Assembly (NCBI GenBank): GCA_015999745.1
Contig: JAECQP010000001.1
Coordinates: forward strand, 124,001-188,000
DNA length: 64,000 nt
Direction: 5' to 3'
Origin: Sphingobacteriia bacterium
GTDB lineage: Bacteria; Bacteroidota; Bacteroidia; Chitinophagales; Chitinophagaceae
Below the pieces are notes generated by a model. It made no database searches, was not told the origin of the DNA, and saw only the letters and a list, made by a program, of their open reading frames with translations. Positions 29,324 through 43,441 of this stretch are shown here, piece after piece. The position numbers were made by a program, and so were the translations under genes. Within the stretch, counting starts at the first letter, position 1. The number at the start of each line of letters is the position of its first letter.

Positions 29324-29932
29324 TTACCAGTTTCTGGACCTTGCATACTGCACCATCATAGCCGTGTTTTTTAATTCCAGTTTCCGGAGTATATTTCTTC
29401 TGTGTGTATTCACGGTATAGGTACTCAAATGAAGCGTTTCCGCAATTTCCTGGCTTGTAAGGCCCTTGCTGATCAGCCCCACAATTTCTATTTCACGCTT
29501 GCTGATATTGTTTTCCAGCGGCTGTTTATTTACCACCGGCTCGTAGTCCCACATAAAAACGGAATTTCCCTGAATCGTTTCCTGTATGGCAGTCAGTAAT
29601 TCTTCCGAAGAAAGGTTTTTGATGATATATCCTTTTATCCCCACCTGCCTGCACTGGTAAACCAGGTCTGTATCATTTTCCATACTCAATATAATAATGG
29701 TGGCGGCAGGATTACTTTCCAAAATTTCTGTTGCCACATTCAGGCCTGTTCCATCCGGAAAATAATAATCCAGCAGAAAAACATCCGGTTGTTTCTCTTT
29801 ATACAATCTCACAGCTTCCTTAGCAGTAAAGGCTTCCCCCTTCCAGTTGAGCCAGTCCACCTCCTTCAGCACGCTTCGGATTCCCTCAACAAATATTTTA
29901 TGATCATCTGCAATTGCTATGGTTGTTTTCAT
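29324..29932 (-). CDS. NarL/LuxR-type response regulator
   Basis: 202 residues. The receiver has the acidic pair in IAIADDHKIFVEGI, Asp55 in VFLLDYYFPDGTGL, and Lys in IKGYIIKNLSSEELL. A LuxR-type helix-turn-helix (about 140-200) holds SKREIEIVGLISKGLTSQEI, AETLHLSTYTVNTHRRNILR. It lies 12 bases after the 7TM-DISM kinase gene on the same strand, so the two form one two-component system. Such pairs control small regulons; targets are not visible. The protein ends KNTAMMVQYARSRNW. Confidence 0.93.
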   Translation of the reverse strand: MKTTIAIADDHKIFVEGIRSVLKEVDWLNWKGEAFTAKEAVRLYKEKQPDVFLLDYYFPDGTGLNVATEILESNPAATIIILSMENDTDLVYQCRQVGIKGYIIKNLSSEELLTAIQETIQGNSVFMWDYEPVVNKQPLENNISKREIEIVGLISKGLTSQEIAETLHLSTYTVNTHRRNILRKLELKNTAMMVQYARSRNW

Positions 29933-29944
29933 GGGTATGCGCGC

Positions 29945-31774
29945 TTAGCTCTTTTTGGTTATTTCAATGATAATCGTTGTTCCTTTTTCATTTGAATCAA
30001 TAGTAACTTTCCCTTCCAGGTATTGAACACGGCTTCGGATATTTTTCCATCCCATCCCATCTGTATTGGCAGGATCAAAGCCCTTACCGTTGTCTTCTAC
30101 CATCAGTATAATGCTGTTTCCTTCTTCCCAGAGCGACACAAAAACCTCTGTGGCTGCTGCATGCTTTTTTACATTATACAACAACTCAGTTACAATCCGG
30201 TAGATTCCGGCTTCTACGGATAATGGATAACGATCCACTACGCCACAATGAAGTCGGACCACAAAATCGTTGGCAGCATTCCACCTGGAAATTGTTTTTT
30301 CTAAAATAGGTACTAATCCCTTCTCCTGCAAATTTACCGGCATTAAATCATGGGCTATATTCCGGAGGTCTTCAATAGCATCTGCTAATTGTTTATCGAT
30401 CCACATTTGTGTTTCAACGGCAGTTTTCAATTGATGAAATGCGCTTATCCTGATACTTCCCAGTAATCCTCCTAACCCATCGTGCAGCTCCCTTGCAAGC
30501 CTTGACCGCTCCTCTTCCTGAACCTGAATGAGTCTGTCGGCCAGCATGGCTTTTTCCGTTTCCAGTGCATACTGCGCGGCTTCATTTTGTTTTTTATAGT
30601 GATCGTATCGCCTGCTTAACCCAAAAGAGAGGATGGTGCTTTCTGCAAGTATTCCTATGGCCGATCCGTACTTTCCAACGAAAATGACCCAGTCTGCCTC
30701 CACACTAAATTGAGAAAGAATATTCATCACAACAAAAATCAACAATACACTCAGCGCTGCTGCAAAAAAATAAGACAGGGTTTTAAACTGCCTGTAATTT
30801 TTATAGATGTAAAATACAATCATACAAACGGCCCCCAGCCAGATAAAACTAACCCCGGTAAGGAAAAGACTCCGGACCATTCCCGACTGCCTGGGAATAT
30901 CCGCAAATATTAAGCACCCTGTTATGATCAGCAAAAGCAACTGAAAAAAACGCAGTTGCTTATTATACAGAGGCGGTATATCCGGGCGGGTAAAAAATCT
31001 TTTACAAAGCTCCAGCATAAAGATAAAACTCATACTGGCAAACAATGGCCTGGACTTATTGGCCAGTTCGGTATTTTCGGGCCAGAGGTATTGAAAACCG
31101 ATTCCCCAGTTCGAAATCACCCACATAGCAGACATGCTGATATAAAGTATATAATAAAAATGGATGCTCTCCTTTAAGGAAATACCCAGAAATATATTCA
31201 GCGTTATCAGAAAAAGGAACCATCCGGCAAAAAAACCATAAACAGCTTTCTGATCTGCCATCATGCCGATCATTTCTTTTTCGGGAATAACGGATAAGGG
31301 AACAAACAGCGATTCTCCTGCTTTATCTACCTGGAGCAATAACCCATCAGAGCCTGCAGGTATGAGAAACCAATAATCCGGGTCTTTAACGAGCCTTCGC
31401 TGAAAGGGATAATAATCTCCTGATTGATAGGAAAATACAATGCTGTCTGCAACTACATTATAAATACGGATGATATTAATGTGCGGATTGGCAACCTGCA
31501 GCCAGGAATTCTGATCATGTCGGGCCGGTATAAAAACCCACCAGGCATTCCTGCTGAAACCGGGATTAAAAAAACCATTCTTCCCGCTACTGTTTTGCTC
31601 CCGGATTCTTAAAAGCGCTTCTTTCGGAGAAAGATACGGACTGTCGGGTGTTACATAAAACGTCGGTTTTACCACATTTGCCGGAGCCTTTGTAAATTGA
31701 TATACCCCAAAAGATAAACATAAGAAAAGCAAGGAAACGACGGTTGCTATATTGCCTTTTTTAAGGTAATCCAT
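29945..31774 (-). CDS. 7TM-DISM sensor histidine kinase
   Basis: 609 residues. An N-terminal membrane anchor (about 8-28), an extracytoplasmic 7TMR-DISMED2 beta-sandwich (about 30-165, with NAWWVFIPARHD), seven membrane segments (about 178-385), then a coiled coil with AQYALETEKAM and a HisKA_3 domain with His431 in SRLARELHDGLGGLLGSIRI, and an HATPase domain with MVEDNGKGFDPANTDGMGWKN at the C-terminal end. The sensing domain of the DISMED2 type usually binds carbohydrates or similar ligands. It is followed at 12 bases by its LuxR-type regulator. Confidence 0.93.
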   Translation of the reverse strand: MDYLKKGNIATVVSLLFLCLSFGVYQFTKAPANVVKPTFYVTPDSPYLSPKEALLRIREQNSSGKNGFFNPGFSRNAWWVFIPARHDQNSWLQVANPHINIIRIYNVVADSIVFSYQSGDYYPFQRRLVKDPDYWFLIPAGSDGLLLQVDKAGESLFVPLSVIPEKEMIGMMADQKAVYGFFAGWFLFLITLNIFLGISLKESIHFYYILYISMSAMWVISNWGIGFQYLWPENTELANKSRPLFASMSFIFMLELCKRFFTRPDIPPLYNKQLRFFQLLLLIITGCLIFADIPRQSGMVRSLFLTGVSFIWLGAVCMIVFYIYKNYRQFKTLSYFFAAALSVLLIFVVMNILSQFSVEADWVIFVGKYGSAIGILAESTILSFGLSRRYDHYKKQNEAAQYALETEKAMLADRLIQVQEEERSRLARELHDGLGGLLGSIRISAFHQLKTAVETQMWIDKQLADAIEDLRNIAHDLMPVNLQEKGLVPILEKTISRWNAANDFVVRLHCGVVDRYPLSVEAGIYRIVTELLYNVKKHAAATEVFVSLWEEGNSIILMVEDNGKGFDPANTDGMGWKNIRSRVQYLEGKVTIDSNEKGTTIIIEITKKS

Positions 31775-33506: not shown

Positions 33507-34430
33507 TCAAACATCATTGTGCGTAAATAAAACAGTGGCTCTTGCCAAGAGCGGATGTATTAAAATTATAAGTGCTATAAGAACCGGATTAACACTCGCT
33601 GCAAAGAGTAAACAGCCAATCAGGAACAAATAAAAAGGATACAGCAGTAAGAGAACGGCAAACAAAACGGAATCGTAAAAGACGGTTCCCCTGGTTTTAT
33701 TTCGGACAATGGCGCTGATGATCTTATAGAGGGGGAAATGTAGAATCCTTCCGGGTATAGACATTAGTTTCCCCGGCAAGTATTGCCTTTTGGCCCTGTT
33801 TTCGGGAAATTGTATCAGCGGTCCCAGTTTTAACCTGATTTGCTGATTAAGAAAGGAGTGATTCTTTGCCGTTTCCTTAAACGGGAGGAGTTTTTTTGCA
33901 GGAATAGGTTCCGCGGCAGCAATCCGCACTTTCTTTCCAAAGCGGGTTAAGGAATCATATGCAATAGCTACCGGCAGCACCAGCAGCGGCTTTTGCAAAT
34001 CAAGACCCGAAGCAATTCTGGCAGCTCCTTTCTTAAATGGTTGAAGTATATGGCTATTGATACAGATGCCTTCAATAAATATCAAAACGATACCCCCTGA
34101 GGCCAAAATGCGACGGCTCTCTGTAAATGCATATTCATTCAGGTGCAGGTTTTCCTTCCCCTCGCTCAACCGGTAAATAGGAATCATATTGAGCAGCCGG
34201 AGAAAAAAGCCGTGATGCTTTTGCTGAAACGCGTCACCTCTTGCCAGAAAGTGCATTTTCCCGGAAAACTGTGCGCCGATCAGAATGGCATCGAGAAAAG
34301 AATTTGGGTGATTGGCCACTACAAGCAAGGGGCCCTTTGTTGTAAAGACTGCCTGGTTCACTACAATCAATTCTTTACAAAACAGCCAAATGGCCGCTTT
34401 AATTAACTTTCTGAATAATTGATAAATCAA
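33507..34430 (-). CDS. PlsC-type lysophospholipid/glycerol acyltransferase
   Basis: 307 residues. The acyltransferase motif is VVANHPNSFLDAI (His41, with Asp47 five residues further than the classical HX4D; the HX5D pattern is known in an eukaryote-like branch), followed by LARGDAFQ and FIEGICINSH as motif III, and a late pair of membrane helices (about 245-300). It transfers an acyl chain to a glycerolipid or another hydroxyl group at the inner membrane. It is the last gene after the esterase/outer-membrane cluster (77 bases), so it may supply acyl groups to the same pathway, or be an unrelated phospholipid enzyme. Family call firm, acceptor not. Confidence 0.87.
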   Translation of the reverse strand: MIYQLFRKLIKAAIWLFCKELIVVNQAVFTTKGPLLVVANHPNSFLDAILIGAQFSGKMHFLARGDAFQQKHHGFFLRLLNMIPIYRLSEGKENLHLNEYAFTESRRILASGGIVLIFIEGICINSHILQPFKKGAARIASGLDLQKPLLVLPVAIAYDSLTRFGKKVRIAAAEPIPAKKLLPFKETAKNHSFLNQQIRLKLGPLIQFPENRAKRQYLPGKLMSIPGRILHFPLYKIISAIVRNKTRGTVFYDSVLFAVLLLLYPFYLFLIGCLLFAASVNPVLIALIILIHPLLARATVLFTHNDV

Positions 34431-34507
34431 GCTGGTGGGGTTAAAAGAACCAAAAACAGGTAAATAATTAGTTGTTTTCTATTTCAGATTAGTTAATAGG
34501 TACTTAA

Positions 34508-35323
34508 TTACGGTAATCGGGTAATTAACGACAGGCCCAGCCCTATTCCTCCGCCTGCATTCCTTCCATAAACCACGGAGGAAACCTGGAACATCGGCAT
34601 GATGGTTCTGGTAATCCTTCTGCCATAGGAAAGGGTAAGCCGGCCATTGGTGAAACTGGTATTAGCAAAAAGGTTCGGGTTAAAACTGGTATTACTGCTC
34701 ACGGATTCCTGGTGCATAAAACTGATGGTAGCAAGGCTGAACATATTGAACTTTCTGCCATATGTGCCAGTATACGTATACTGCCTGGGACCCTCGGGAT
34801 TGTCGAAAAAATGGGTATATGCCGCCTGCACTATGGCAAATGCCGCTTTACCTGCCGCAAAAGAATAGTTTACCTCCAGTCCATAGGCCCGGGAAGAATA
34901 TCCAAGTGAAACCACACTGTCTTTCTGGTACATCGGAATCATGAATATGGCTTTGGCCGTAAAATGCCGGTGCTGATCATCGGAAGAAAAATGTTTTGCC
35001 AGGCCGATAGATACGTCGCCGAAACCGGAATTACCCCGGATTGAATCTTGATTTACTCCTCTTTGGATAATATACGGAACATTGATCAGCAGATCAAGAC
35101 TTCTGCCCAATCCATGATTCAACGACATATTTACGATATGTGTGGCAAAATAATTATTGGAAGGAAAAGGGTTTCTTTTCCAGCTTCTGTCGTAATTGGA
35201 GGCGGAATAAAAATACGTATAACCTGGCAGCAATGAGATTCTGCCCTTACCAACCGGCCAGTCGGCTCTTGCTTTCTGCAAAAATGCCGTTAACAATACC
35301 AGGATGATTATTCCCTTTCTCAT
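34508..35323 (-). CDS. Outer-membrane beta-barrel protein A of the esterase cluster
   Basis: 271 residues with signal peptide (MRKGIIILVLLTAFLQKARA). The mature N terminus ADWPVGKGRISLLPGYTYFY is shared with the two paralogues in this cluster (ADWPVGKGRTSL, AGFPIGRGKYLI). The rest alternates aromatic and polar residues: SLNHGLGRSLDLLINVPYII, FGDVSIGLAKHF, KAIFMIPMYQ, LTLSYGRRITRTIMPMFQVS. This fits a 12- to 14-strand barrel related to the MetA-pathway/phenol-degradation transporter family. It may be a porin or a lipid/glycan exporter. Its start overlaps the stop of esterase A by four bases, so the two are translated in pair. No function is established. Confidence 0.75.
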   Translation of the reverse strand: MRKGIIILVLLTAFLQKARADWPVGKGRISLLPGYTYFYSASNYDRSWKRNPFPSNNYFATHIVNMSLNHGLGRSLDLLINVPYIIQRGVNQDSIRGNSGFGDVSIGLAKHFSSDDQHRHFTAKAIFMIPMYQKDSVVSLGYSSRAYGLEVNYSFAAGKAAFAIVQAAYTHFFDNPEGPRQYTYTGTYGRKFNMFSLATISFMHQESVSSNTSFNPNLFANTSFTNGRLTLSYGRRITRTIMPMFQVSSVVYGRNAGGGIGLGLSLITRLP

Positions 35324-37167
35324 TTACCAATGTTTTGTCTTTTCCGCAATAACTTTTCACTCATCCAGATCATTTGATAATGCCTGTGTTCCATCGTGAT
35401 TTCGTGTCCCAGGTGGGGGGCCACATACATTTCACTTTTCCCGATGGTTGCCGGATTCAATTTATTAAATGCCGCTATCACCGTTGCCGCCGGTGCCAAC
35501 GGATCCAGCAAACTCACGGCATACAACACCGAACAATTGATCATTGGCATGAAGTTTTGTACTTCAAAATAACTCAGGTTATCCAATAGTTGTTCAATCG
35601 TAACCGATGGATTGTCTTTTGTATAATCCACTACATGTTTAATGGGAAAATTATCATATAACGGATTACCCAGCAATTTATAGCTCTCATGGAAATCACA
35701 GAAAATAGGATTGTCTACAATCAGGCTGTTGATGCGATTACCTGTTAATGCTGCAGTTACCAGCGATAAAGTAGCACCCTGGCTTCCACCAAAAACCAAA
35801 ACCCTCGATAAGTCAAATCCCATTTCTTCGTGTGAATAAATAAAGTCGATGGCCCTGACACAATCCATGTACATTCCCCTGTACATATACCTGTCTTTAT
35901 CGGCGATATTAATCAACAGCGGTTGTTCATTCTCCGGGTTAAAGGGCTTCCAGTTTTTTTCAATCCCCCTTGTATTGAGGTTGAAGCCGATATTGTTCTC
36001 ATACAATAAAGGTTCCAGTTCCACCCTGTATCCCTGCAGGCCCACAATCACCGGATATTTTCCGGGTAGCCTTGGGATTGTCAGCCATCCGAAAATTTTT
36101 ACCTCGTTGAGTGAAATCATTTCCACCTTATATACTTTATGGAAGCGGGTAGTTCTGGTTTGATCGAGTATAATATTGTATTTGGGGTCAATTGCGGCCA
36201 GTTCGGCTTTTGCTGTTTCCCAAAAGGCTTCAAAATCTGGTGGTTTATGATACGGTGAGGCAATGCCGCTTACTTTATATCCAAAAGCATATTTGGTGGT
36301 GTCGTCGTAAGTGGTAAGATTCAATGCAACGGTAATACCATAAACACCCGGAGACGATACCGGCGGAATTTTAATTTTAAACTGTTTGCTTCCTTTTCTG
36401 GCCAGTTTTATGGCCACCACCCTTGTTTCAAGTGTTTCTCCGTTATCCGCTTTAAGGATATACGTGAGGGTGCCCTCCTGTTTAACTTTATATTTATTGG
36501 TAAGATGAACCTGGTATCCAATATTATCCGGATCCCAAAATACACCATCTCTATTGATTGGCTTAATTACCGTAATAATTTCCCCTTCATCGTCGGACGC
36601 CTCCAATTCTCCCTCTGTATGCTGATCGGGGTCTTCGGGAATATCTTCTGCTGAGGCGATCTTTTCAAAATTTGCTGCGGTATTATTGAGTTCATACGGG
36701 TTTCCTGGTTTGTCCTGCTTTAAAGATTTCGGATCCTTGTACGTAAATTCACTGGTAAGGTCTCCCGTGAAATCATTGAGCGTAAGGTCAAAGCGGATAG
36801 TGAAGGCGCCGTTTTCATTGAAGGGGATTACAAAAGCGGATTCAAATGTTTTTTTGGCAGCAACTTTTACAGCATAAGAACCGGTTGAATGAATTTCATG
36901 CTGATTGTTCCTGATTGTATAAAACAATGTTCCCTCCTGATCTGTTTCCAGGTTATTTTTAAAACTGGCACGATACTTCACCGGGTTCTTTTTTCCGAAA
37001 ACAGCCTTCGATTTTGCCGGAAGAATTCTGATTTCAACAGGATCTCCTGCAACAGAACAGCGGTTTTCCCCGGCAAATAGTAGCTGGCTATTGATTAGTA
37101 ATCCTACAAGCAGTAATAATACCGCAGGGGTTGAAAATTTCTTTTTATTCTTTTGTACAACAGTCAA
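35320..37167 (-). CDS. AXE1-like secreted esterase A with two Ig-like domains
   Basis: 615 residues. A long signal peptide (about 1-32) is followed by an Ig-like domain with NLETDQEGTLFYTIRN, a strongly acidic linker (about 165-205, with EDIPEDPDQHTEGELEASDD), a second Ig-like domain with YKVKQEGTLTYILKADNGET, and an alpha/beta-hydrolase of the acetylxylan-esterase/cephalosporin-deacetylase type (about 300-610). The catalytic residues are Ser462 in VFGGSQGATLS, Asp555 in AVSLLDPLAP, and His588 in APHLGHEIT. Activity would be release of acetyl or other acyl groups outside the cytoplasm. It is the third of three paralogues and ends in a 4-base overlap with outer-membrane gene A. Substrate unknown. 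Confidence 0.85.
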   Translation of the reverse strand: MTVVQKNKKKFSTPAVLLLLVGLLINSQLLFAGENRCSVAGDPVEIRILPAKSKAVFGKKNPVKYRASFKNNLETDQEGTLFYTIRNNQHEIHSTGSYAVKVAAKKTFESAFVIPFNENGAFTIRFDLTLNDFTGDLTSEFTYKDPKSLKQDKPGNPYELNNTAANFEKIASAEDIPEDPDQHTEGELEASDDEGEIITVIKPINRDGVFWDPDNIGYQVHLTNKYKVKQEGTLTYILKADNGETLETRVVAIKLARKGSKQFKIKIPPVSSPGVYGITVALNLTTYDDTTKYAFGYKVSGIASPYHKPPDFEAFWETAKAELAAIDPKYNIILDQTRTTRFHKVYKVEMISLNEVKIFGWLTIPRLPGKYPVIVGLQGYRVELEPLLYENNIGFNLNTRGIEKNWKPFNPENEQPLLINIADKDRYMYRGMYMDCVRAIDFIYSHEEMGFDLSRVLVFGGSQGATLSLVTAALTGNRINSLIVDNPIFCDFHESYKLLGNPLYDNFPIKHVVDYTKDNPSVTIEQLLDNLSYFEVQNFMPMINCSVLYAVSLLDPLAPAATVIAAFNKLNPATIGKSEMYVAPHLGHEITMEHRHYQMIWMSEKLLRKRQNIGK

Positions 37168-37192
37168 TATTCAGAATTAAATATGAAAAATG

Positions 37193-38017
37193 CTAAGGGA
37201 GTTTCATTACCAAAAAAACACTTGCGCTCATTCCAAGCCCAATGTTCTTTCCATAAAGCGTATAGGCGCCCTGCAAATACGGCGTTAGGGTTCTGCTGAT
37301 TTTCCTGCCATATGCAAATGTTAATAAACCTGAGCTGAAATTTCTGGTAGCCTGTGGATTAGGATTAAATACAGTATTGACGCTCTCCGACACCTGGTGC
37401 GCAAAATTGAAAGTAACCAGGCTGTATTTATTCAGCGACCTTCCAAAAGTAAATGCACCCCTGTATTGATTGGGGCCTTCGGCATAATCAATGAATCTTG
37501 TATAGGAGCCTTCAATAACAGCAAAAGATTGTTTAAAGGGTGTAAACGAATAGTTTACGGTTGCCTGCAAACCCTTGGAAGCATAGCCCAGCTCAGGTGT
37601 TTTATTGTTTTCGTACGTAGGTATAATGACCTGCGCCTTGATGGTAAGGTGCTTTTGAAATTCAGCAGAAGGAAAATGGTAAGCAAGCCCCACTGAAATA
37701 TCTCCAACGCCCGAGTTGGTTTTCCGGATACCATTCGAAACCTGGTCCTGTGCAATAAAAGGGAGGTTGGCCACTACATCCAGTCTTCTTCCCAAACCAT
37801 GTACCATGGTAAGCCCATAAAAATGGGATTGGAATTTATCTCCGGGATTAAAAGAAGCCAGTTTTCCATTGGCATCAAAATACTTCGACGAATAAAAGTA
37901 ATTATATGAAGCAATCAGGGATGTCCTTCCCTTGCCTACGGGCCAGTCGGCCCTGCAGGTAAAGGCCAGCAGGAACAACGCAGCGGAACATATTATTTTA
38001 TTGATTGCCGAATTCAT
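37193..38017 (-). CDS. Outer-membrane beta-barrel protein B of the esterase cluster
   Basis: 274 residues, signal peptide MNSAINKIICSAALFLLAFT, mature start CRADWPVGKGRTSLIASYNY. Paralogue of protein A in the same cluster with the same length and the same strand plan: MVHGLGRRLDVVANLPFIAQ, GVGDISVGLAYHF, KAQVIIPTYENN, GLLTFAYGRKISRTLTPYLQ. The repeated glycine-arginine turns (GLGRRLD, YGRKISR) are shared with protein A. Its start lies 20 bases inside the 3' end of esterase B, with AAGGA three bases before the ATG. This is coupled expression of an esterase with a barrel partner. The channel or exporter role is inferred from fold only. Confidence 0.75.
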   Translation of the reverse strand: MNSAINKIICSAALFLLAFTCRADWPVGKGRTSLIASYNYFYSSKYFDANGKLASFNPGDKFQSHFYGLTMVHGLGRRLDVVANLPFIAQDQVSNGIRKTNSGVGDISVGLAYHFPSAEFQKHLTIKAQVIIPTYENNKTPELGYASKGLQATVNYSFTPFKQSFAVIEGSYTRFIDYAEGPNQYRGAFTFGRSLNKYSLVTFNFAHQVSESVNTVFNPNPQATRNFSSGLLTFAYGRKISRTLTPYLQGAYTLYGKNIGLGMSASVFLVMKLP

Positions 38018-39869
38018 TCCTTATGGATTTTCTTTTTTTAACTACTTTCTCCAAAAACCATTTACTCACAAAAGCATCATGACTTCTGGGTACTTCGTGG
38101 CCCAATGTTGGAAAAACATACAGCTCGCTTTTGGCGATTGTTTCAGGACTCATTTTATTGTAAGCGGCCAATGCGGTTCCGGGTGGTACAAACTCATCCA
38201 GTAAGCTCACCGCATATAAAACGGGGCAGGCAACCGCAGGCATAAAATTCTGTACTTCAAAATACTGAAGCGTATGAACCATGTTGTCGATGGTCATTTC
38301 CGGGTTTTTATCCTGAAATCTGCGCAGATCCCGGATCGGGAATTGAATATTGGGATTGGATTGCGTGATTTCAACATGTCTTGCCCAATCGAAAAAGATC
38401 GGGTTGTTGGCTACCACAGTGTTGATTTTATCGGGCATCATGGCGGCGGCAATCAGTGAAAGCGACGCGCCCTGGCTACCGCCAAAAGCAACAACCCTTC
38501 GAAGATCCATCCCCATATCTCCATGGGAGTGAATAAACTCCACCGCTCTTATACAGTCCATATAAATGCCGCGATATATATAGTCATCCTTATTTTCTAT
38601 ATTTACCAGCAGCTGTTCCCTGTTTTCGGGGTTAATCTGTTCCTTCACTTTTTTATCAATACCCCTAACGTTTACGGTAAAGCTGATAAAGTCATCGAAA
38701 TAAAGCGGGCTGAGTTCAATTTTATATCCTCCAAAACCAATCAGTACAGGATACTTACCCTTTGGCTTGGGAATACTCAGCCAGCCAAAAACAGGCACAT
38801 TCCCCAGCGATTGAAATTCCACCCTGTAAACGGTGTGGAAATACGTGCTTTTGCTTTCGTCAGGAATAATTCTGTATTGCGGGTCAATTGCGGCCAGTTC
38901 GTTCCTGGCGGTTTTCCAGAACTCATCAAAGTCGGGTGCAAGATGGTACGGTGTTGCAATATTGTTGATCCTGTAACCAAATGCATGCTTGGTGGTATCA
39001 TCGTAAGTGCTCACATTCAGCGCGGCATCAATATTGTAAACGCCGGCCTGGGTTATCTCCGGTAATTTAACCGTGAACTTTCTGATGCCCTTTTTCCCCA
39101 TTTTAATATTTACCACCGTTTCACCCACCGGTTTCCCCTCTTCTGTTTTTACAATCAGCTTAAAGGTTCCCTCCTGCTTCGCTTTGTACTTATTGATCAG
39201 CGTAACAGTGTAGCGGATGTTTTTCCCGTTGTAAAACAGGCCGTCTGCATTGTAGGGTTTTACCTTTGTAATGATTTCTCCCTCTTCTTCAGATTCTTCT
39301 TCGTCATGCGCTTCTTCTGTCGCTACCTCCTTGTCAGACTCCGCCACCAGCGCTTCCCTGGTGGAGGCATCGGACTGATCTATATTGTCTCTGGACCAGT
39401 TTTGGTCGTAAGGATTGGGGATATTCCTCCGGTCGTTTGCTTTTCGGGGAGGCCCGCTGTAACTGAATTCTCTCGTGATCAGTTCAGCATGATCATTCAG
39501 TTCAATGTTGGCATTCAGGGTATATTCCCCTTCGGTATCAAGCGGAACCTCAAAAGAGGATTCGATTTTTTTTCTGGCATTTACCCGAACATCCAGGGAA
39601 TTTCGAAGAATGGTTTCTCCGCTGTTGTTCTTTACAGTATACACCAGTGTTCCCTCCTGGTCGTTGGTAAAATTGTTTTTAATGGAAACTTTGAACCGTA
39701 TCGGTTTTCTTGCGCTAAAGCTGGCTTTTTTACTGGCAGCATTCAAAAGAACCACCACCCCTTCTTCGTTGCCCCTTTTTTGAAACGCCGAGCCCCTGAA
39801 AGGCATAAAAAACAAGCCGATCAGCAAAAAGCCAAACAGGTTGATTTTATATATAGCGGCGGATTTCAT
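37998..39869 (-). CDS. AXE1-like secreted esterase B with two Ig-like domains
   Basis: 623 residues from the ATG at 39869, four bases after the stop of the acyltransferase gene; an in-frame ATG at 39902 would overlap that gene by 29 bases. Signal peptide MKSAAIYKINLFGFLLIGLF, Ig-like domain 1 with NFTNDQEGTLVYTVKNNSGE, an acidic linker (VAESDKEVATEEAHDEEESE), Ig-like domain 2 with YKAKQEGTFKLIVKTEEGKP, and the AXE1-type hydrolase. The triad is Ser465 in AFGGSQGASLS, Asp558 in AVSLLDEFVPP, and His591 in FPTLGHEVP. All catalytic residues are kept. It is close to esterase A in sequence and layout, and has a barrel partner gene right behind it. Confidence 0.85.
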   Translation of the reverse strand: MKSAAIYKINLFGFLLIGLFFMPFRGSAFQKRGNEEGVVVLLNAASKKASFSARKPIRFKVSIKNNFTNDQEGTLVYTVKNNSGETILRNSLDVRVNARKKIESSFEVPLDTEGEYTLNANIELNDHAELITREFSYSGPPRKANDRRNIPNPYDQNWSRDNIDQSDASTREALVAESDKEVATEEAHDEEESEEEGEIITKVKPYNADGLFYNGKNIRYTVTLINKYKAKQEGTFKLIVKTEEGKPVGETVVNIKMGKKGIRKFTVKLPEITQAGVYNIDAALNVSTYDDTTKHAFGYRINNIATPYHLAPDFDEFWKTARNELAAIDPQYRIIPDESKSTYFHTVYRVEFQSLGNVPVFGWLSIPKPKGKYPVLIGFGGYKIELSPLYFDDFISFTVNVRGIDKKVKEQINPENREQLLVNIENKDDYIYRGIYMDCIRAVEFIHSHGDMGMDLRRVVAFGGSQGASLSLIAAAMMPDKINTVVANNPIFFDWARHVEITQSNPNIQFPIRDLRRFQDKNPEMTIDNMVHTLQYFEVQNFMPAVACPVLYAVSLLDEFVPPGTALAAYNKMSPETIAKSELYVFPTLGHEVPRSHDAFVSKWFLEKVVKKRKSIRNEFGNQ

Positions 39870-39873
39870 AGGC

Positions 39874-41085
39874 CTATTCTTTTGACTGGTTACCTGTGGC
39901 AACCTTTTTTTTCTCCAACAGGGATGATTTTCTGATATAAAGATTTACCGGTTCTTCTATAAACTTATAAAGAATAATGGAAACAAGGTTCAATATGATG
40001 AATACCATCCCTACCAGTACAACAGTGTAATTGATATGTTCTGATAACCACCAGTATTCATTGGCATCCAGCCATGCATAAAAACGATCCGTATTTTTTT
40101 CGCTGAAATCGCTGGCCAGTTTTGAAATGAATCCAATGTGGATCAGGTAAAAAATATAAGAGCTCTTACCAAGCAGTTGCATAAGCGAACCCGATAACCA
40201 GTACCGAATCAACGATTTTTCTTTCATTAAACCATAAAAGAACAACGCAATACCAATGGGTAAAAGAACATTGTTGGAAAAAATACCAACTGGTTGGTAG
40301 AGTCCATAGGGTGTTGCAGTATCAATTGGTTGTATAGCCATAATGCCAACGCTTGCTGCCATTACTACAATGCCAAGTAATGTAAACAAGGGGTGTTTTT
40401 TAACAGTGTTGTCGCTTTTTAAGATGACGAGCGCCAGTGCCATACCAATAAAAAATTCCACGCAGCGGCCAAAAAAGGTATATAGGAACATGAATTTGAG
40501 GTTGCCAAAGAATCCCCAGAAACTCAGGTTACCAAAAATCAATACCAGTAAAACACCGATACCCAGCAATATCAGCGGAAGATAGAAAAGGGCTTTTTTC
40601 GTTTTTTTAATATACAGGAAAAAGAAGGGTGCCATGAAATAAAAACACTCCTCCACCGTAAGCGACCAGCCCTGGCTTACGCCGGTGAATTTCAGATCAT
40701 CAAAAAAGCCCCTGATAAAAAATATATTCAGGAAAATCAACAAAACGGGTGAAAAGAAATTATTATACACTGAGTGATCTCCGATCCACCAGGCAAATGC
40801 AAAAGTGGCCACTGTAAGAATCAGGTACATTGGATAAATCCGTGCAATCCTGTTTTTAAGATATTTACGGAACCAGGTGCCATTAATTTCACAGGTATCA
40901 AAATACCTCAAACAGATCAGAAATCCACTCAATACAAAGAAGAGCGTAACACCAATATGAAACTCATTCAGTATTCTGAAAAGCGGATAAGGAAATTCGG
41001 CCTGGTTAAAATGATGGAAAAACACCAGAAAAGCTGCAATTGCTCTTACACCAGTTAGGGCCGGGATATATACATTAGACTTCAT
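39874..41085 (-). CDS. Acyltransferase-3 family membrane protein (OafA-like)
   Basis: 403 residues with ten or eleven membrane helices. The start IPALTGVRAIAAFLVFFHHF holds the conserved Arg and the histidine pair of the family; ILNEFHIGVTLFFVLSGFLI is the second signature, and RIYPMYL the third. Such proteins transfer acetyl or other acyl groups from the cytoplasm or membrane to sugars of lipopolysaccharide, peptidoglycan, exopolysaccharide or antibiotics. Its place within a run of acyl esterases suggests acylation of the same glycan that the esterases work on. There is no fused SGNH domain. It lies 17 bases after outer-membrane gene C and four before esterase B. Confidence 0.88.
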   Translation of the reverse strand: MKSNVYIPALTGVRAIAAFLVFFHHFNQAEFPYPLFRILNEFHIGVTLFFVLSGFLICLRYFDTCEINGTWFRKYLKNRIARIYPMYLILTVATFAFAWWIGDHSVYNNFFSPVLLIFLNIFFIRGFFDDLKFTGVSQGWSLTVEECFYFMAPFFFLYIKKTKKALFYLPLILLGIGVLLVLIFGNLSFWGFFGNLKFMFLYTFFGRCVEFFIGMALALVILKSDNTVKKHPLFTLLGIVVMAASVGIMAIQPIDTATPYGLYQPVGIFSNNVLLPIGIALFFYGLMKEKSLIRYWLSGSLMQLLGKSSYIFYLIHIGFISKLASDFSEKNTDRFYAWLDANEYWWLSEHINYTVVLVGMVFIILNLVSIILYKFIEEPVNLYIRKSSLLEKKKVATGNQSKE

Positions 41086-41102
41086 ATGCTGTTTTTCTTC
41101 GG

Positions 41103-41927
41103 CTATAATTTGGCAACAATCGAAATGGAACCACCGCCACCCTTACCGGTGTTTTTTCCGGAAATATCTGTGAAGATGTTAATAAAAAACTGGTAATTCT
41201 GGTCAATCTTTCTTCCATATCCCGCTGTTAATCTGAAATAGGAAAAAGACCTGATCGCAGCAAGGTTACCATAGTTGAATATGGATTGGGTGCTGTTCGA
41301 TTTTACGCCACTCATGGCAAAAGTAAACTTATTCATTTCATCTACCGGAACACCCAATAACGCATCAAAGAACAACTGTGTTGGTCCTTCGGGACTAAAA
41401 TACTGCTTCACACCGGCATTGATGTCGTAGTAAGTATTTCTCAATCTCTCCCGGTTGGTTCCGGAAAAAGACATTTTTATTTCTCCGCCCACCTGTTGAA
41501 AACCGGTATAGGGTTGTTTGGAAGCGTTGTTCTGGTAAAGCGGTACAATCAATGATCCGGATACCGTTAAAAATTTATAGTAGTCGAAGCTGTTGAGCAA
41601 ATATTGCAGGCCAAAACTGGCATCGCCCAGGCTGGCATTCTGTTCGGTAAGATTGGTTTCCATCTTGCGCTGGATGGTATAGTTGATATTACCAATGAAA
41701 TCGAGGTTTTCTGTTAACCCGACACCCCCATACAAGCCAAAATAATGAGAGGAAAAACGACCGCCGTTGGCATAGTCTACATACGTACCGTCGTCCTTCC
41801 AATAACCTTTTGCCTGGTACAGGTTATAAGATGGTACAATCAGATACTTTCCTCTTCCTATAGGAAACCCCGCATAAGCGGCACTGGAAATCATTGCAAA
41901 AAGAAGGAGTGAAAGGACCTGTTTCAT
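41103..41927 (-). CDS. Outer-membrane beta-barrel protein C of the esterase cluster
   Basis: 274 residues, signal peptide MKQVLSLLLFAMISSAAYA. The mature start GFPIGRGKYLIVPSYNLYQA matches the WPVGKGR start of proteins A and B but has diverged the most of the three. Strands include GLTENLDFIGNINYTIQ, ASLGDASFGLQYLL, SGSLIVPLYQNN, RLTAGYGRKIDQNYQFFIN. Acts presumably in the outer membrane. It follows the inactive esterase-like gene C by 20 bases and precedes the acyltransferase-3 gene by 17, so all lie in one transcript. The conserved alternation of esterase and barrel genes is the main hint to a joint role. Confidence 0.75.
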   Translation of the reverse strand: MKQVLSLLLFAMISSAAYAGFPIGRGKYLIVPSYNLYQAKGYWKDDGTYVDYANGGRFSSHYFGLYGGVGLTENLDFIGNINYTIQRKMETNLTEQNASLGDASFGLQYLLNSFDYYKFLTVSGSLIVPLYQNNASKQPYTGFQQVGGEIKMSFSGTNRERLRNTYYDINAGVKQYFSPEGPTQLFFDALLGVPVDEMNKFTFAMSGVKSNSTQSIFNYGNLAAIRSFSYFRLTAGYGRKIDQNYQFFINIFTDISGKNTGKGGGGSISIVAKL

Positions 41928-41947
41928 TGTGTTGTTTTGTTTGGTGA

Positions 41948-43276
41948 TCAGAGAATTTTTTTAATCCAATAATTCTGCAGGGAGTAATAGATATAGTTCA
42001 TACCCTCTGCGTCGGGACTCATAAATATTTCCCGGTTGTCTATCCGGATCTGGTTATACAATGCTATTGCAGCCTGGGGCGGACAAACCGTGTTTTTAAG
42101 GTTATGTCCAAATAATACCCTGCACCTGATATTGGGTGCAAAATTCACCGGATCAAAATAATCCCAGACTCTGAACAAACCCTCTTTATTTAACCTGTTA
42201 CGGGGGTTGGCAAGATAGGATTGAAAATTTCTGACCGGCCAGGGCTGAACCTTTTGGGTTTCGGCCATCATAAAGAGGGTGCGCATATCCACGTATACCG
42301 TCCTTTCCAGGATACAGCCCTGCGGCCTGCTATCCATCGAAGCAACCACTGCTGCCAGCACGGCGCCCTGTCCTTCGCCTTTTACCACCACTTTCCTGGT
42401 ATCCAGTTTCAGGTGTTCATGCCGGTAAATAAAATCCAGGCCGCGCAGGGCATCCATGTATACCCCCCGATAGATGTACCTGTTTTTATCGTTAAGGCCA
42501 ATTACATTAAACGTATTATAATCAGCATTTGTATTGTCTCTGCTGTTGCCATGTCCTCTTACATTCAACCGGAATACCGCCATGTCTTTTCTCAGAGAGT
42601 CCGGGCGCATCTCTTCCAGGTAACCGGGGAGTTCATATAAAACTTTAAACCGGCCTCTTTCCTTCGGTACAGAAAGCCACCCCCTGATGGTCTGCATGTC
42701 GATCGACTGAAACTCTACCATAAACACATCCACCTCCCTGGTACTCTGATCACCCCTTCGGGTAACCCGGAATTTAGGATCGATATTAATCAGGTCTCTT
42801 CTGGCATCGTCCCAGAATTGATCAAAATCTGCCGGGCGGTTCACATTGGAATAAATTTTCTCCGGATCCACCCCGTAACCAAAGTACAGTGTATCTATAT
42901 ACCTGTTGGCAGAAACAATGATCGACAGTTGGTAAAAACCCGGTACAGTTCTGTCGTTCTCCAATTTAAGATCAGTAGCAAACCCTCTTTTGGCATCTAT
43001 CGTAAAACCCATTTCCTGGTTAAATGTCTGTTCGCCTTTATAATTCCTGACTTCCACCCTCATACTTCCCCTGATCTTTTCACCAGTGTTGTTTTTCAAT
43101 CTTACATCATAACCCACTTTATCGTCATTCCGGAAAATGGATTCTTTTTTAAAGGGGCGGATATCATAGGTAATGCCTTTCTGTGCCAGGCATACTGTTC
43201 CTGTACTCAAAATGAGTAAGAGGCAGCGCATAAGAACACTACTCAGGTGCAAAACTCCGGGTACCCTTGCATTCAT
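41948..43276 (-). CDS. AXE1-like pseudo-esterase C with lost catalytic triad
   Basis: 442 residues. The usual start may be the ATG at 43231 (MRCLLLILSTGTVCLAQKG, a clear signal peptide); the 43276 start adds 15 residues. One Ig-like domain (about 35-130, with NNTGEKIRGSMRVEVRNYKG) precedes the hydrolase fold. Aligned with esterases A and B without gaps around the site, GGSQG is replaced by GEGQG (Ser to Gly302), the Asp of LLDP by LKNT (Asn395), and the His of LGHE by DAEGM (Gly425). It cannot act as a serine esterase in the usual way. The first Ig-like domain and the acidic linker are also absent. It is the first gene of the cluster, and may bind the substrate or act as a scaffold. Confidence 0.85.
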   Translation of the reverse strand: MNARVPGVLHLSSVLMRCLLLILSTGTVCLAQKGITYDIRPFKKESIFRNDDKVGYDVRLKNNTGEKIRGSMRVEVRNYKGEQTFNQEMGFTIDAKRGFATDLKLENDRTVPGFYQLSIIVSANRYIDTLYFGYGVDPEKIYSNVNRPADFDQFWDDARRDLINIDPKFRVTRRGDQSTREVDVFMVEFQSIDMQTIRGWLSVPKERGRFKVLYELPGYLEEMRPDSLRKDMAVFRLNVRGHGNSRDNTNADYNTFNVIGLNDKNRYIYRGVYMDALRGLDFIYRHEHLKLDTRKVVVKGEGQGAVLAAVVASMDSRPQGCILERTVYVDMRTLFMMAETQKVQPWPVRNFQSYLANPRNRLNKEGLFRVWDYFDPVNFAPNIRCRVLFGHNLKNTVCPPQAAIALYNQIRIDNREIFMSPDAEGMNYIYYSLQNYWIKKIL

Positions 43277-43412: not shown

Positions 43413-43441
43413 TAAAAAAGCCCCGGCCTTTCGGTCGGGGC
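43413..43441 (-). terminator. Rho-independent terminator of recA
   Basis: In the minus direction GCCCCGACC / GGCCGGGGC (one G-T type mismatch at the top) with loop GAAA, followed by TTTTTT, 28 bases after the recA stop. Confidence 0.88.

What the first reader, a model, noticed from the sequence alone, without database searches (positions are those of the whole stretch)
33507..43276. Tandem esterase / outer-membrane barrel modules with two acyltransferases
On one strand an AXE1-like secreted esterase gene is directly followed by a gene for a 271-274-residue outer-membrane barrel protein, three times (43276-41103, 39869-37193, 37167-34508). An acyltransferase-3 gene lies inside (41085-39874) and a PlsC-type acyltransferase gene at the end (34430-33507). 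The genes touch or overlap (4, 20, 4 bases) or are 17-25 bases apart up to the last barrel gene, so one operon is likely. Enzymes that put on and take off acyl groups, with barrel partners, suggest a system that edits acylation of an exported glycan or lipid. I know of no described pathway with this layout.
Basis: partly seen in the sequence, partly recalled or inferred. Interest (0 to 1): 0.75.

Follow-up and report, generated by a model that had tools for sequence, protein, structure and literature searches.

The report
Acyltransferase, esterase and membrane-channel operon
A freshwater bacterium and some relatives carry a conserved operon in which a membrane enzyme that moves acyl groups outward is paired with secreted esterases and their own outer-membrane channels, plus a catalytically dead esterase kept under strong selection, which looks like a machine for adjusting acyl groups on something at the cell surface.

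Summary
In detail: three esterase–barrel pairs, an acyltransferase-3 (AT3) and a PlsC-like gene lie at the stated places. The pair is a real unit: in 117 genomes of the family, 16 of 17 esterase places found with E3 adjoin a barrel gene, and partners co-evolve. AT3 with esterase and barrel recurs in another family. The barrels are modelled as small channels nearest a COG4313 channel and FapF (modest model).

The PlsC-like gene is a fast-evolving add-on.

Best reading: an acyl-modification unit at the outer membrane. AT3 supplies acyl groups, live esterases trim (or pass on) them, channels export, the dead pair binds. Direction and acceptor are unproven; a GH18–deacetylase–GT2 synthase co-occurs and sits in the operon of one genome, but genome size confounds this. 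Components are of known kinds; seven literature searches listed no description of the layout.

The parts
41948..43276 (-). E1: AXE1-fold pseudo-esterase (442 aa); Ser->Gly, Asp->Asn, His->Glu; shorter N-terminal region than E2/E3
   Evidence: dN/dS 0.024-0.027
41103..41927 (-). B1: partner outer-membrane barrel of E1 (274 aa)
   Evidence: dN/dS 0.015-0.017
39874..41085 (-). AT3: stand-alone acyltransferase-3 membrane protein (403 aa), R-X10-H (R14/H25) and RXXR motifs present
37998..39869 (-). E2: AXE1 esterase (623 aa from ATG), longer N-terminal region, Ser/Asp/His present
37193..38017 (-). B2: partner barrel of E2 (274 aa); modelled as a small barrel, nearest folds COG4313 channel 4rl8 and FapF
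35320..37167 (-). E3: AXE1 esterase (615 aa), Ser462/Asp555/His588 present; two N-terminal beta-rich stretches in the model
34508..35323 (-). B3: partner barrel of E3 (271 aa)
33507..34430 (-). PlsC-like acyltransferase (307 aa); peripheral, fast evolving; NHPNSFLD instead of the usual HX4D spacing
43414..43441 (-). Terminator-like hairpin and T tail after recA, probable upstream boundary of the operon
   Evidence: read by eye; z -1.33; not listed by the scan

Best explanation
The cluster encodes an extracytoplasmic acyl-modification unit that works at the outer membrane. AT3 carries acyl groups (probably acetyl) from cytoplasmic acyl-CoA across the inner membrane onto an extracytoplasmic acceptor. 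The periplasmic AXE1 enzymes E2 and E3, each paired with its own small outer-membrane channel (B2, B3), set the final acyl pattern by removing acyl groups as the acceptor passes to the outside. E1-B1 is a non-catalytic copy of such a pair that binds the same or a related ligand and acts as receptor, scaffold or gate. The acceptor is most likely an exported glycan. Shown here: gene content, active-site state, conserved pairing, co-evolution, selection; predicted: barrel fold class. Inferred: location (signal peptides by eye), physical docking of E and B, direction of the reaction, acceptor.
For: In the 117-genome family sample 10 genomes have both genes among 13 with either (barrel only: G037, and G007 at E 7.7e-4; esterase only: G114, found with E1 as query), and 16 of 17 esterase places adjoin a barrel. 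In the genus sample 21 of 24 strong esterase places adjoin a barrel. Trees agree: r=0.876 over 39 pairs, 0 of 2000 permutations as high; re-dealing partners inside genomes reaches it in 0 of 5000. AT3 (E up to 1e-60) is in 11 of 61 genus genomes, all 11 among the 12 with a barrel match. AT3, E and B trees agree (17 sets, r 0.838, 0.861, 0.948). AT3 with E and B recurs in 3 genomes of another family, in two followed by a TPR protein. AT3 motifs intact in 17 of 17; triad intact in 30 of 30 active-type rows. Analogues: PelA-PelB and PgaB-PgaA couple a modifying enzyme to an exporter (PMC12022489 passages); WcsU and KpACE add and remove capsule acetyl groups (PMC11556721 passages). A GH18-deacetylase-GT2 synthase lies inside the cluster of G066 and is in 10 of 10 esterase-barrel genomes of the family sample against 40 of 107 others.
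Against: In most loci no glycan gene is linked; the cluster lies between recA and an amidase gene. COG4313 channels are implicated in uptake of hydrophobic molecules (PMC4493636 passages). Uncoupled cases: two E-B pairs of G024 with no AT3 in the 18-20 kb fetched, one such locus in G078; an active-type esterase of G142 with no barrel beside it (L135); barrels without esterase in G037 and, in another class, G393. The barrel model is of modest confidence: pLDDT 64, the other four models 37-41. Nothing shows activity, location or interaction.
Confidence: 0.38

Rival explanations
1. Acyl relay: E2/E3 are not deacylases but the missing periplasmic transferase partner of the stand-alone AT3. AT3 hands the acyl group to the catalytic serine of the AXE1 enzyme, which passes it to the acceptor at the barrel, as the SGNH domain is thought to do in OafB/OatA or PatB for PatA.
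For: In OafB the triad of the SGNH domain is required for O-acetylation, and an as yet unknown partner of stand-alone AT3 proteins has been proposed (PMC9833829 passages). Here a stand-alone AT3 with intact motifs is co-inherited with a Ser-Asp-His hydrolase, and AT3 and E trees agree.
Against: The solved relatives with the best matches are named as esterases or deacetylases. E-B pairs with no AT3 in the fetched stretch exist in G024 and at one G078 locus. Editing and relay make the same genomic predictions.
Confidence: 0.25
2. Nutrient scavenging: E-B pairs deacylate oligosaccharides or amphipathic esters and the barrel imports the product; AT3 is a passenger.
For: The best-matching solved relatives are acetyl xylan esterases and cephalosporin C deacetylases; COG4313 channels are implicated in uptake (PMC4493636 passages); an amidase gene follows; an active-type esterase of G142 stands without barrel or AT3 beside it.
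Against: No glycoside hydrolase or SusCD-type family among the 20 window genes scanned; AT3 is co-inherited and co-evolves; a dead esterase under the strongest selection has no obvious role in scavenging.
Confidence: 0.16
3. Outer-membrane lipid remodelling: AT3, the PlsC-like enzyme and the esterases edit acyl chains on an outer-membrane lipid, which the COG4313-like barrels move.
For: A PlsC-like gene closes the cluster in Sediminibacterium loci; a COG4313 channel had detergent bound in the barrel and is thought to move amphipathic molecules (PMC4493636 passages).
Against: No PlsC homologue in the AT3-E-B loci of the second family; PlsC evolves fastest; the esterase profile matches carbohydrate esterases.
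Confidence: 0.12

Closest known systems
AT3-SGNH O-acetyltransferases (OafB, OatA) and the PatA/PatB pair
   Same: Membrane acyl exporter with a Ser-hydrolase-fold partner outside the cytoplasm; AT3 motifs R-X10-H and RXXR present
   Different: Partner here is a separate AXE1 alpha/beta-hydrolase, not SGNH, and is tied to an outer-membrane barrel; transfer not shown
Klebsiella WcsU/KpACE capsule acetylation pair
   Same: One enzyme adds and a secreted esterase removes acetyl groups of a surface glycan (PMC11556721 passages)
   Different: KpACE has a CBM48 and an esterase domain nearest DmCE1B, not AXE1; wcsU is in the capsule locus and kpACE at another; no barrel partner in the passages seen
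PelA-PelB and PgaB-PgaA polysaccharide modification/export pairs
   Same: Periplasmic modifying enzyme coupled to an outer-membrane exporter (PMC12022489 passages); a TPR protein follows AT3-E-B in two genomes
   Different: PelA works on N-acetyl groups and PelB carries TPRs on its barrel; here ester-type enzymes and small barrels without TPR
COG4313 / PF13557 outer-membrane channels and FapF
   Same: Model matches 4rl8 (Z 23.3, rmsd 2.7, 237 aligned) and FapF (Z 22.6), tied; some weak profile kin match PF13557
   Different: No direct match of the barrels to PF13557 or to a solved structure by sequence; esterase partner
CE7 acetyl xylan esterase / cephalosporin C deacetylase
   Same: Catalytic domain by profile (1l7a, 2.4e-53) and model (6agq, 8.8e-20)
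   Different: Extra N-terminal region; RG followed by a residue other than Q in most members; E1 lacks the triad

Membership tests
AXE1 / CE7 esterase (E2, E3) | AXE1 profile match above Pfam cut-off | tested here: met
   148.8 and 130.7 bits against cut-off 21
AXE1 / CE7 esterase (E2, E3) | Ser-Asp-His catalytic triad | tested here: met
   E3 S462, D555, H588 and the aligned residues of E2
AXE1 / CE7 esterase (E2, E3) | RGQ motif (recalled as typical of CE7) | tested here: not met
   RGI in E2 and E3; RGQ in 3 of 30 active-type rows
AXE1 / CE7 esterase (E1) | Ser-Asp-His catalytic triad | tested here: not met
   Ser->Gly, Asp->Asn/Ser, His replaced in 16 of 16 rows; a further member, L138, also has Gly at the Ser place, its other two places not examined
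Acyltransferase-3 (AT3) | PF01757 match with R-X10-H and RXXR motifs | tested here: met
   104.7 bits against cut-off 31; motifs in 17 of 17
AT3-SGNH O-acetyltransferase | Fused C-terminal SGNH domain | tested here: not met
   403-aa protein, AT3 domain over residues 8-364, no SGNH family listed
COG4313 / PF13557 outer-membrane channel | 12-stranded barrel preceded by an N-terminal segment | tested here: inconclusive
   Best match 4rl8 over 237 residues, but the model is modest (pLDDT 64) and DSSP lists 13 strands of 8 or more residues
COG4313 / PF13557 outer-membrane channel | Direct PF13557 match | tested here: not met
   No match for B1-B3; of ten weak or distant relatives scanned, L091 and L096 pass the cut-off
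PlsC acylglycerol-phosphate acyltransferase | NHX4D catalytic motif (recalled) | tested here: inconclusive
   NHPNSFLD, one residue longer; FIEG present; PF01553 65.6 bits
Synthase-dependent exopolysaccharide export system | Linked polysaccharide synthase | tested here: inconclusive
   Inside the cluster in G066, within 10 kb of E1-B1 in G072 and G052, elsewhere in the window's genome

The most novel reading that the evidence does not exclude
The AXE1 enzymes are the sought extracytoplasmic transferase partners of a stand-alone AT3: an AT3-to-alpha/beta-hydrolase acyl relay delivered to an acceptor at a dedicated outer-membrane channel, with a conserved catalytically dead hydrolase-channel pair (E1-B1) acting as acceptor receptor or gate.
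Probability: 0.22. Interest if true: 0.8.

Novelty: new variant of a known kind. Interest (0 to 1): 0.55.

Why it matters
How stand-alone AT3 proteins hand acyl groups to acceptors outside the cytoplasm is open; a partner protein has been proposed but was unknown to the authors of PMC9833829 (passages). This cluster is a compact, conserved candidate on which to test it. It also shows a pseudo-esterase under stronger selection than its live paralogues that keeps its own outer-membrane barrel, which argues for a binding or gating role. If confirmed, it would show how some Bacteroidota adjust acyl groups on surface material.

Tried and rejected
No result: barrels against solved structures by sequence (none up to E 10); NCBIfam (no listed family reached its cut-off for E1-E3, the barrels or AT3); plasmids with B2 (no match); a Bacteroidetes-type promoter pattern (recalled) in the gaps (none); sigma-70 and terminator scan (22 and 12 found against 24.2 and 13.0 in shuffles, so no evidence); genome-contig scan with B2, which finds close kin only (2 loci). 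Most barrel hits of the phylum search at E 1e-5 to 1e-14 are generic barrels and were not counted as members.

Considered and rejected: that E1's lost triad is an alignment slip or decay (16 of 16 rows share Ser->Gly; dN/dS 0.024-0.027); that AXE1 genes in general sit beside such barrels (six other AXE1 loci that were looked at, L120-L123, L136, L137, have none; a seventh, in G120, was not fetched); that the GH18-deacetylase-GT2 synthase is a fixed part. My ORF picker hid PlsC in L076; it is there in the reading.

Dropped rows: L084 is the same contig as L076 and was left out of trees and of the adjacency count, but is among the 16 and 30 rows. The pair trees leave out the barrels of L070 (split in two frames), L126 B1 and L127 (fragments), L075, L118 and L119 (no paired esterase), and the broken E1 of L078. 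For L124 the AT3 was paired with the esterase beside the barrel, not the one beside AT3. L134-L138 were looked at only and are not in the counts. The Fisher test of esterase against barrel left out the weak barrel hit of G007. The neighbourhood comparison used 20 synthase genomes with and 22 without the cluster, not all of them; the one with G037, which has a barrel alone, was counted among those with it.

Full report
What is there. The window lies at G000:C5:124001-188000 of a 3.03-Mb genome in 71 contigs. Its nearest named relatives are Sediminibacterium MAGs. On the minus strand, after recA and a terminator-like hairpin (by shuffles not better than chance, z -1.33), come E1-B1-AT3-E2-B2-E3-B3 with spacings of 20, 17, 4, -20, 25 and -4 nt, then after 77 nt a PlsC-like gene, 52 nt an amidase gene, 30 nt a 7TM sensor kinase gene. 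E1-E3 are AXE1 proteins, AT3 an acyltransferase-3 protein; the barrels match no Pfam family above its cut-off.

The first esterase is dead. Aligned with 49 rows from related loci (two of them fragments), all 16 E1-type rows (15 genomes, as L084 repeats L076) have Gly for the nucleophilic Ser, Asn or Ser for Asp, and a residue other than His at the third place; the 30 active-type rows that are beside a barrel or in tandem with one that is keep all three; the other four are AXE1 genes without a barrel, with triads. A further member, L138, seen later, also has Gly at the Ser place. In quick trees the 14 E1-type rows used form one side of a branch (support 100) and their 13 barrels do so too (support 96). 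It is not decay: dN/dS against L083 is E1 0.024, B1 0.017, AT3 0.064, E2 0.053, E3 0.056, B2 0.038, B3 0.054, PlsC 0.100, amidase 0.060, recA 0.012, GGT 0.025; against L076 E1 0.027, B1 0.015, AT3 0.058, E2 0.070, E3 0.043, B2 0.056, B3 0.062. So E1 and B1 are the most constrained genes of the cluster in both comparisons, where dS of the cluster genes is 0.76 to 2.2. For the more distant L077 and L079 dS was saturated for most genes; by identity E1 stays the most conserved cluster gene, but B1 is below AT3 in L077 (0.675 against 0.765).

The pair is a conserved unit. In an even sample of 117 family genomes, E3 finds 17 places in 10 genomes, 16 of them next to a barrel gene on the same strand (one of these barrels, in G073, is split in two frames). 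The exception is the dead E1 of G066, whose B1-type barrel lies at the far end of the cluster. Barrels without an esterase: G037, and a weak hit in G007 (7.7e-4). With E1 as query one more genome appears, G114, an AXE1 gene without a barrel. In the genus sample 24 strong esterase places (E below 1e-100) lie in 11 genomes, 21 beside a barrel; the others are the first of two tandem esterases in G150 and G154, and a lone active-type esterase in G142. In the fetched loci, which were chosen by such hits, 36 of 44 AXE1 genes have a barrel as the next gene within 35 nt. Over 39 pairs the two trees correlate with r=0.876 (0 of 2000 permutations as high), and re-dealing partners within the nine genomes that hold several pairs never reaches it (0 of 5000). 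Partners are therefore specific.

Two modules. E1-B1 stands after recA without AT3 in the fetched stretch in L070, L073 and L074, and away from recA in L071 and L072. AT3-E-B-PlsC stands after recA without E1-B1 in L063 and L082, and with two esterases in L124. Sediminibacterium loci L076-L081 and L083 have both. AT3 (E up to 1e-60) is in 11 of 61 genus genomes, all among the 12 with a barrel match; the 12th, G119, has a barrel cut off at a contig end. AT3, E and B trees agree over 17 sets (r 0.838, 0.861, 0.948). In 345 genomes of the phylum, three genomes of a second family have AT3 with E and B (L115-L117; in L115 in the order AT3-B-E, E-B); in L116 and L117 a TPR protein follows. Three of their four esterases have RGQ, and all four have the triad. 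No PlsC homologue is seen in these loci. One genome of another class, G393, has a related barrel (1.4e-32) without an AXE1 gene beside it.

Folds. The barrel model (nine-sequence alignment, pLDDT 64, pTM 0.65; the other four models 37-41) has 13 strands of 8 or more residues by DSSP. Its best matches are the COG4313 channel 4rl8 (Z 23.3, rmsd 2.7, 237 aligned) and FapF (Z 22.6), which are tied, then KdgM and NanC (19.6-20.9) and autotransporter barrels. Of ten weak or distant relatives scanned two match PF13557 above its cut-off. The E3 model (pLDDT 62.5) has two beta-rich N-terminal stretches (44-143, 197-287) and a CE7-like hydrolase domain.

What the acceptor might be. In G066 a 1141-aa GH18-polysaccharide deacetylase-GT2 protein lies inside the cluster. 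The same gene is in the window's genome, elsewhere. It is in 50 of 117 family genomes, including 10 of 10 with esterase-barrel pairs (Fisher p=1.2e-4), and in 28 of 61 genus genomes, including 11 of 12 with the barrel (p=6e-4). It lies 5-8 kb from E1-B1 in G052 and G072. Against this: its usual neighbours in the genus are housekeeping genes, with and without the cluster, and larger genomes tend to have both; for genus genomes at least 90% complete and 2.8 Mb the association is 9 of 9 against 3 of 6 (p=0.044). No correction for ancestry was made. An amino-sugar polymer is a lead, not a finding.

Mechanism. AT3 proteins bring acyl groups to the outside. In OafB the triad of the SGNH domain is needed for acetylation, and an unknown partner of stand-alone AT3 proteins has been proposed (PMC9833829, passages). 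PelA-PelB and PgaB-PgaA show periplasmic modifiers coupled to outer-membrane exporters (PMC12022489, passages). WcsU and KpACE show an acetyltransferase and a secreted esterase setting capsule acetylation; the authors also conclude that binding of KpACE to the matrix, apart from catalysis, enhances biofilm (PMC11556721, passages), a possible parallel to E1. I commit to acyl editing at an outer-membrane exit (0.38), with an acyl relay (0.25), scavenging (0.16) and lipid remodelling (0.12) as rivals. Sequence cannot separate the first two.

Known or new. Each component belongs to a known kind. Seven searches of the open-licence library listed no paper with this layout; of the papers listed I saw passages of five (PMC9833829, PMC4493636, PMC11556721, PMC12022489, PMC2824669; the last held nothing on this). 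I rate it a new variant of a known kind.

Noticed in passing
L064:13187-16612 (minus); G000:C8:24312-27692: A GH18 + polysaccharide deacetylase + GT2 fusion protein is widespread in the family (50 of 117 genomes) and lies inside the esterase-barrel cluster in G066.
   Followed up: partly
window 29324-31774: A 7TM-DISM sensor histidine kinase and a LuxR-type response regulator follow the cluster and are kept there in L078-L081 and L083; they might regulate it.
   Followed up: no
L077:7231-7632: A 133-aa remnant matching the N-terminal part of E3 between B2 and PlsC, suggesting loss of an E3-B3 pair.
   Followed up: partly
L078:12368-13704: The dead esterase E1 is split into two open frames (366 and 70 aa) in G152, while B1 is open; sequencing error or real loss was not decided.
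   Followed up: no
L124:10336-13926 and L125:10649-14206: Two esterases in tandem share one barrel; in the one next to the barrel the motif around the catalytic Asp differs (CFRDALA).
   Followed up: no
L075:9603-10493: A B1-type barrel (296 aa) without any esterase beside it in G037, about 7 kb from recA.
   Followed up: no
L135:8050-9876: A lone active-type esterase (608 aa, about 39% identical to E2) in G142 with neither barrel nor AT3 beside it.
   Followed up: partly
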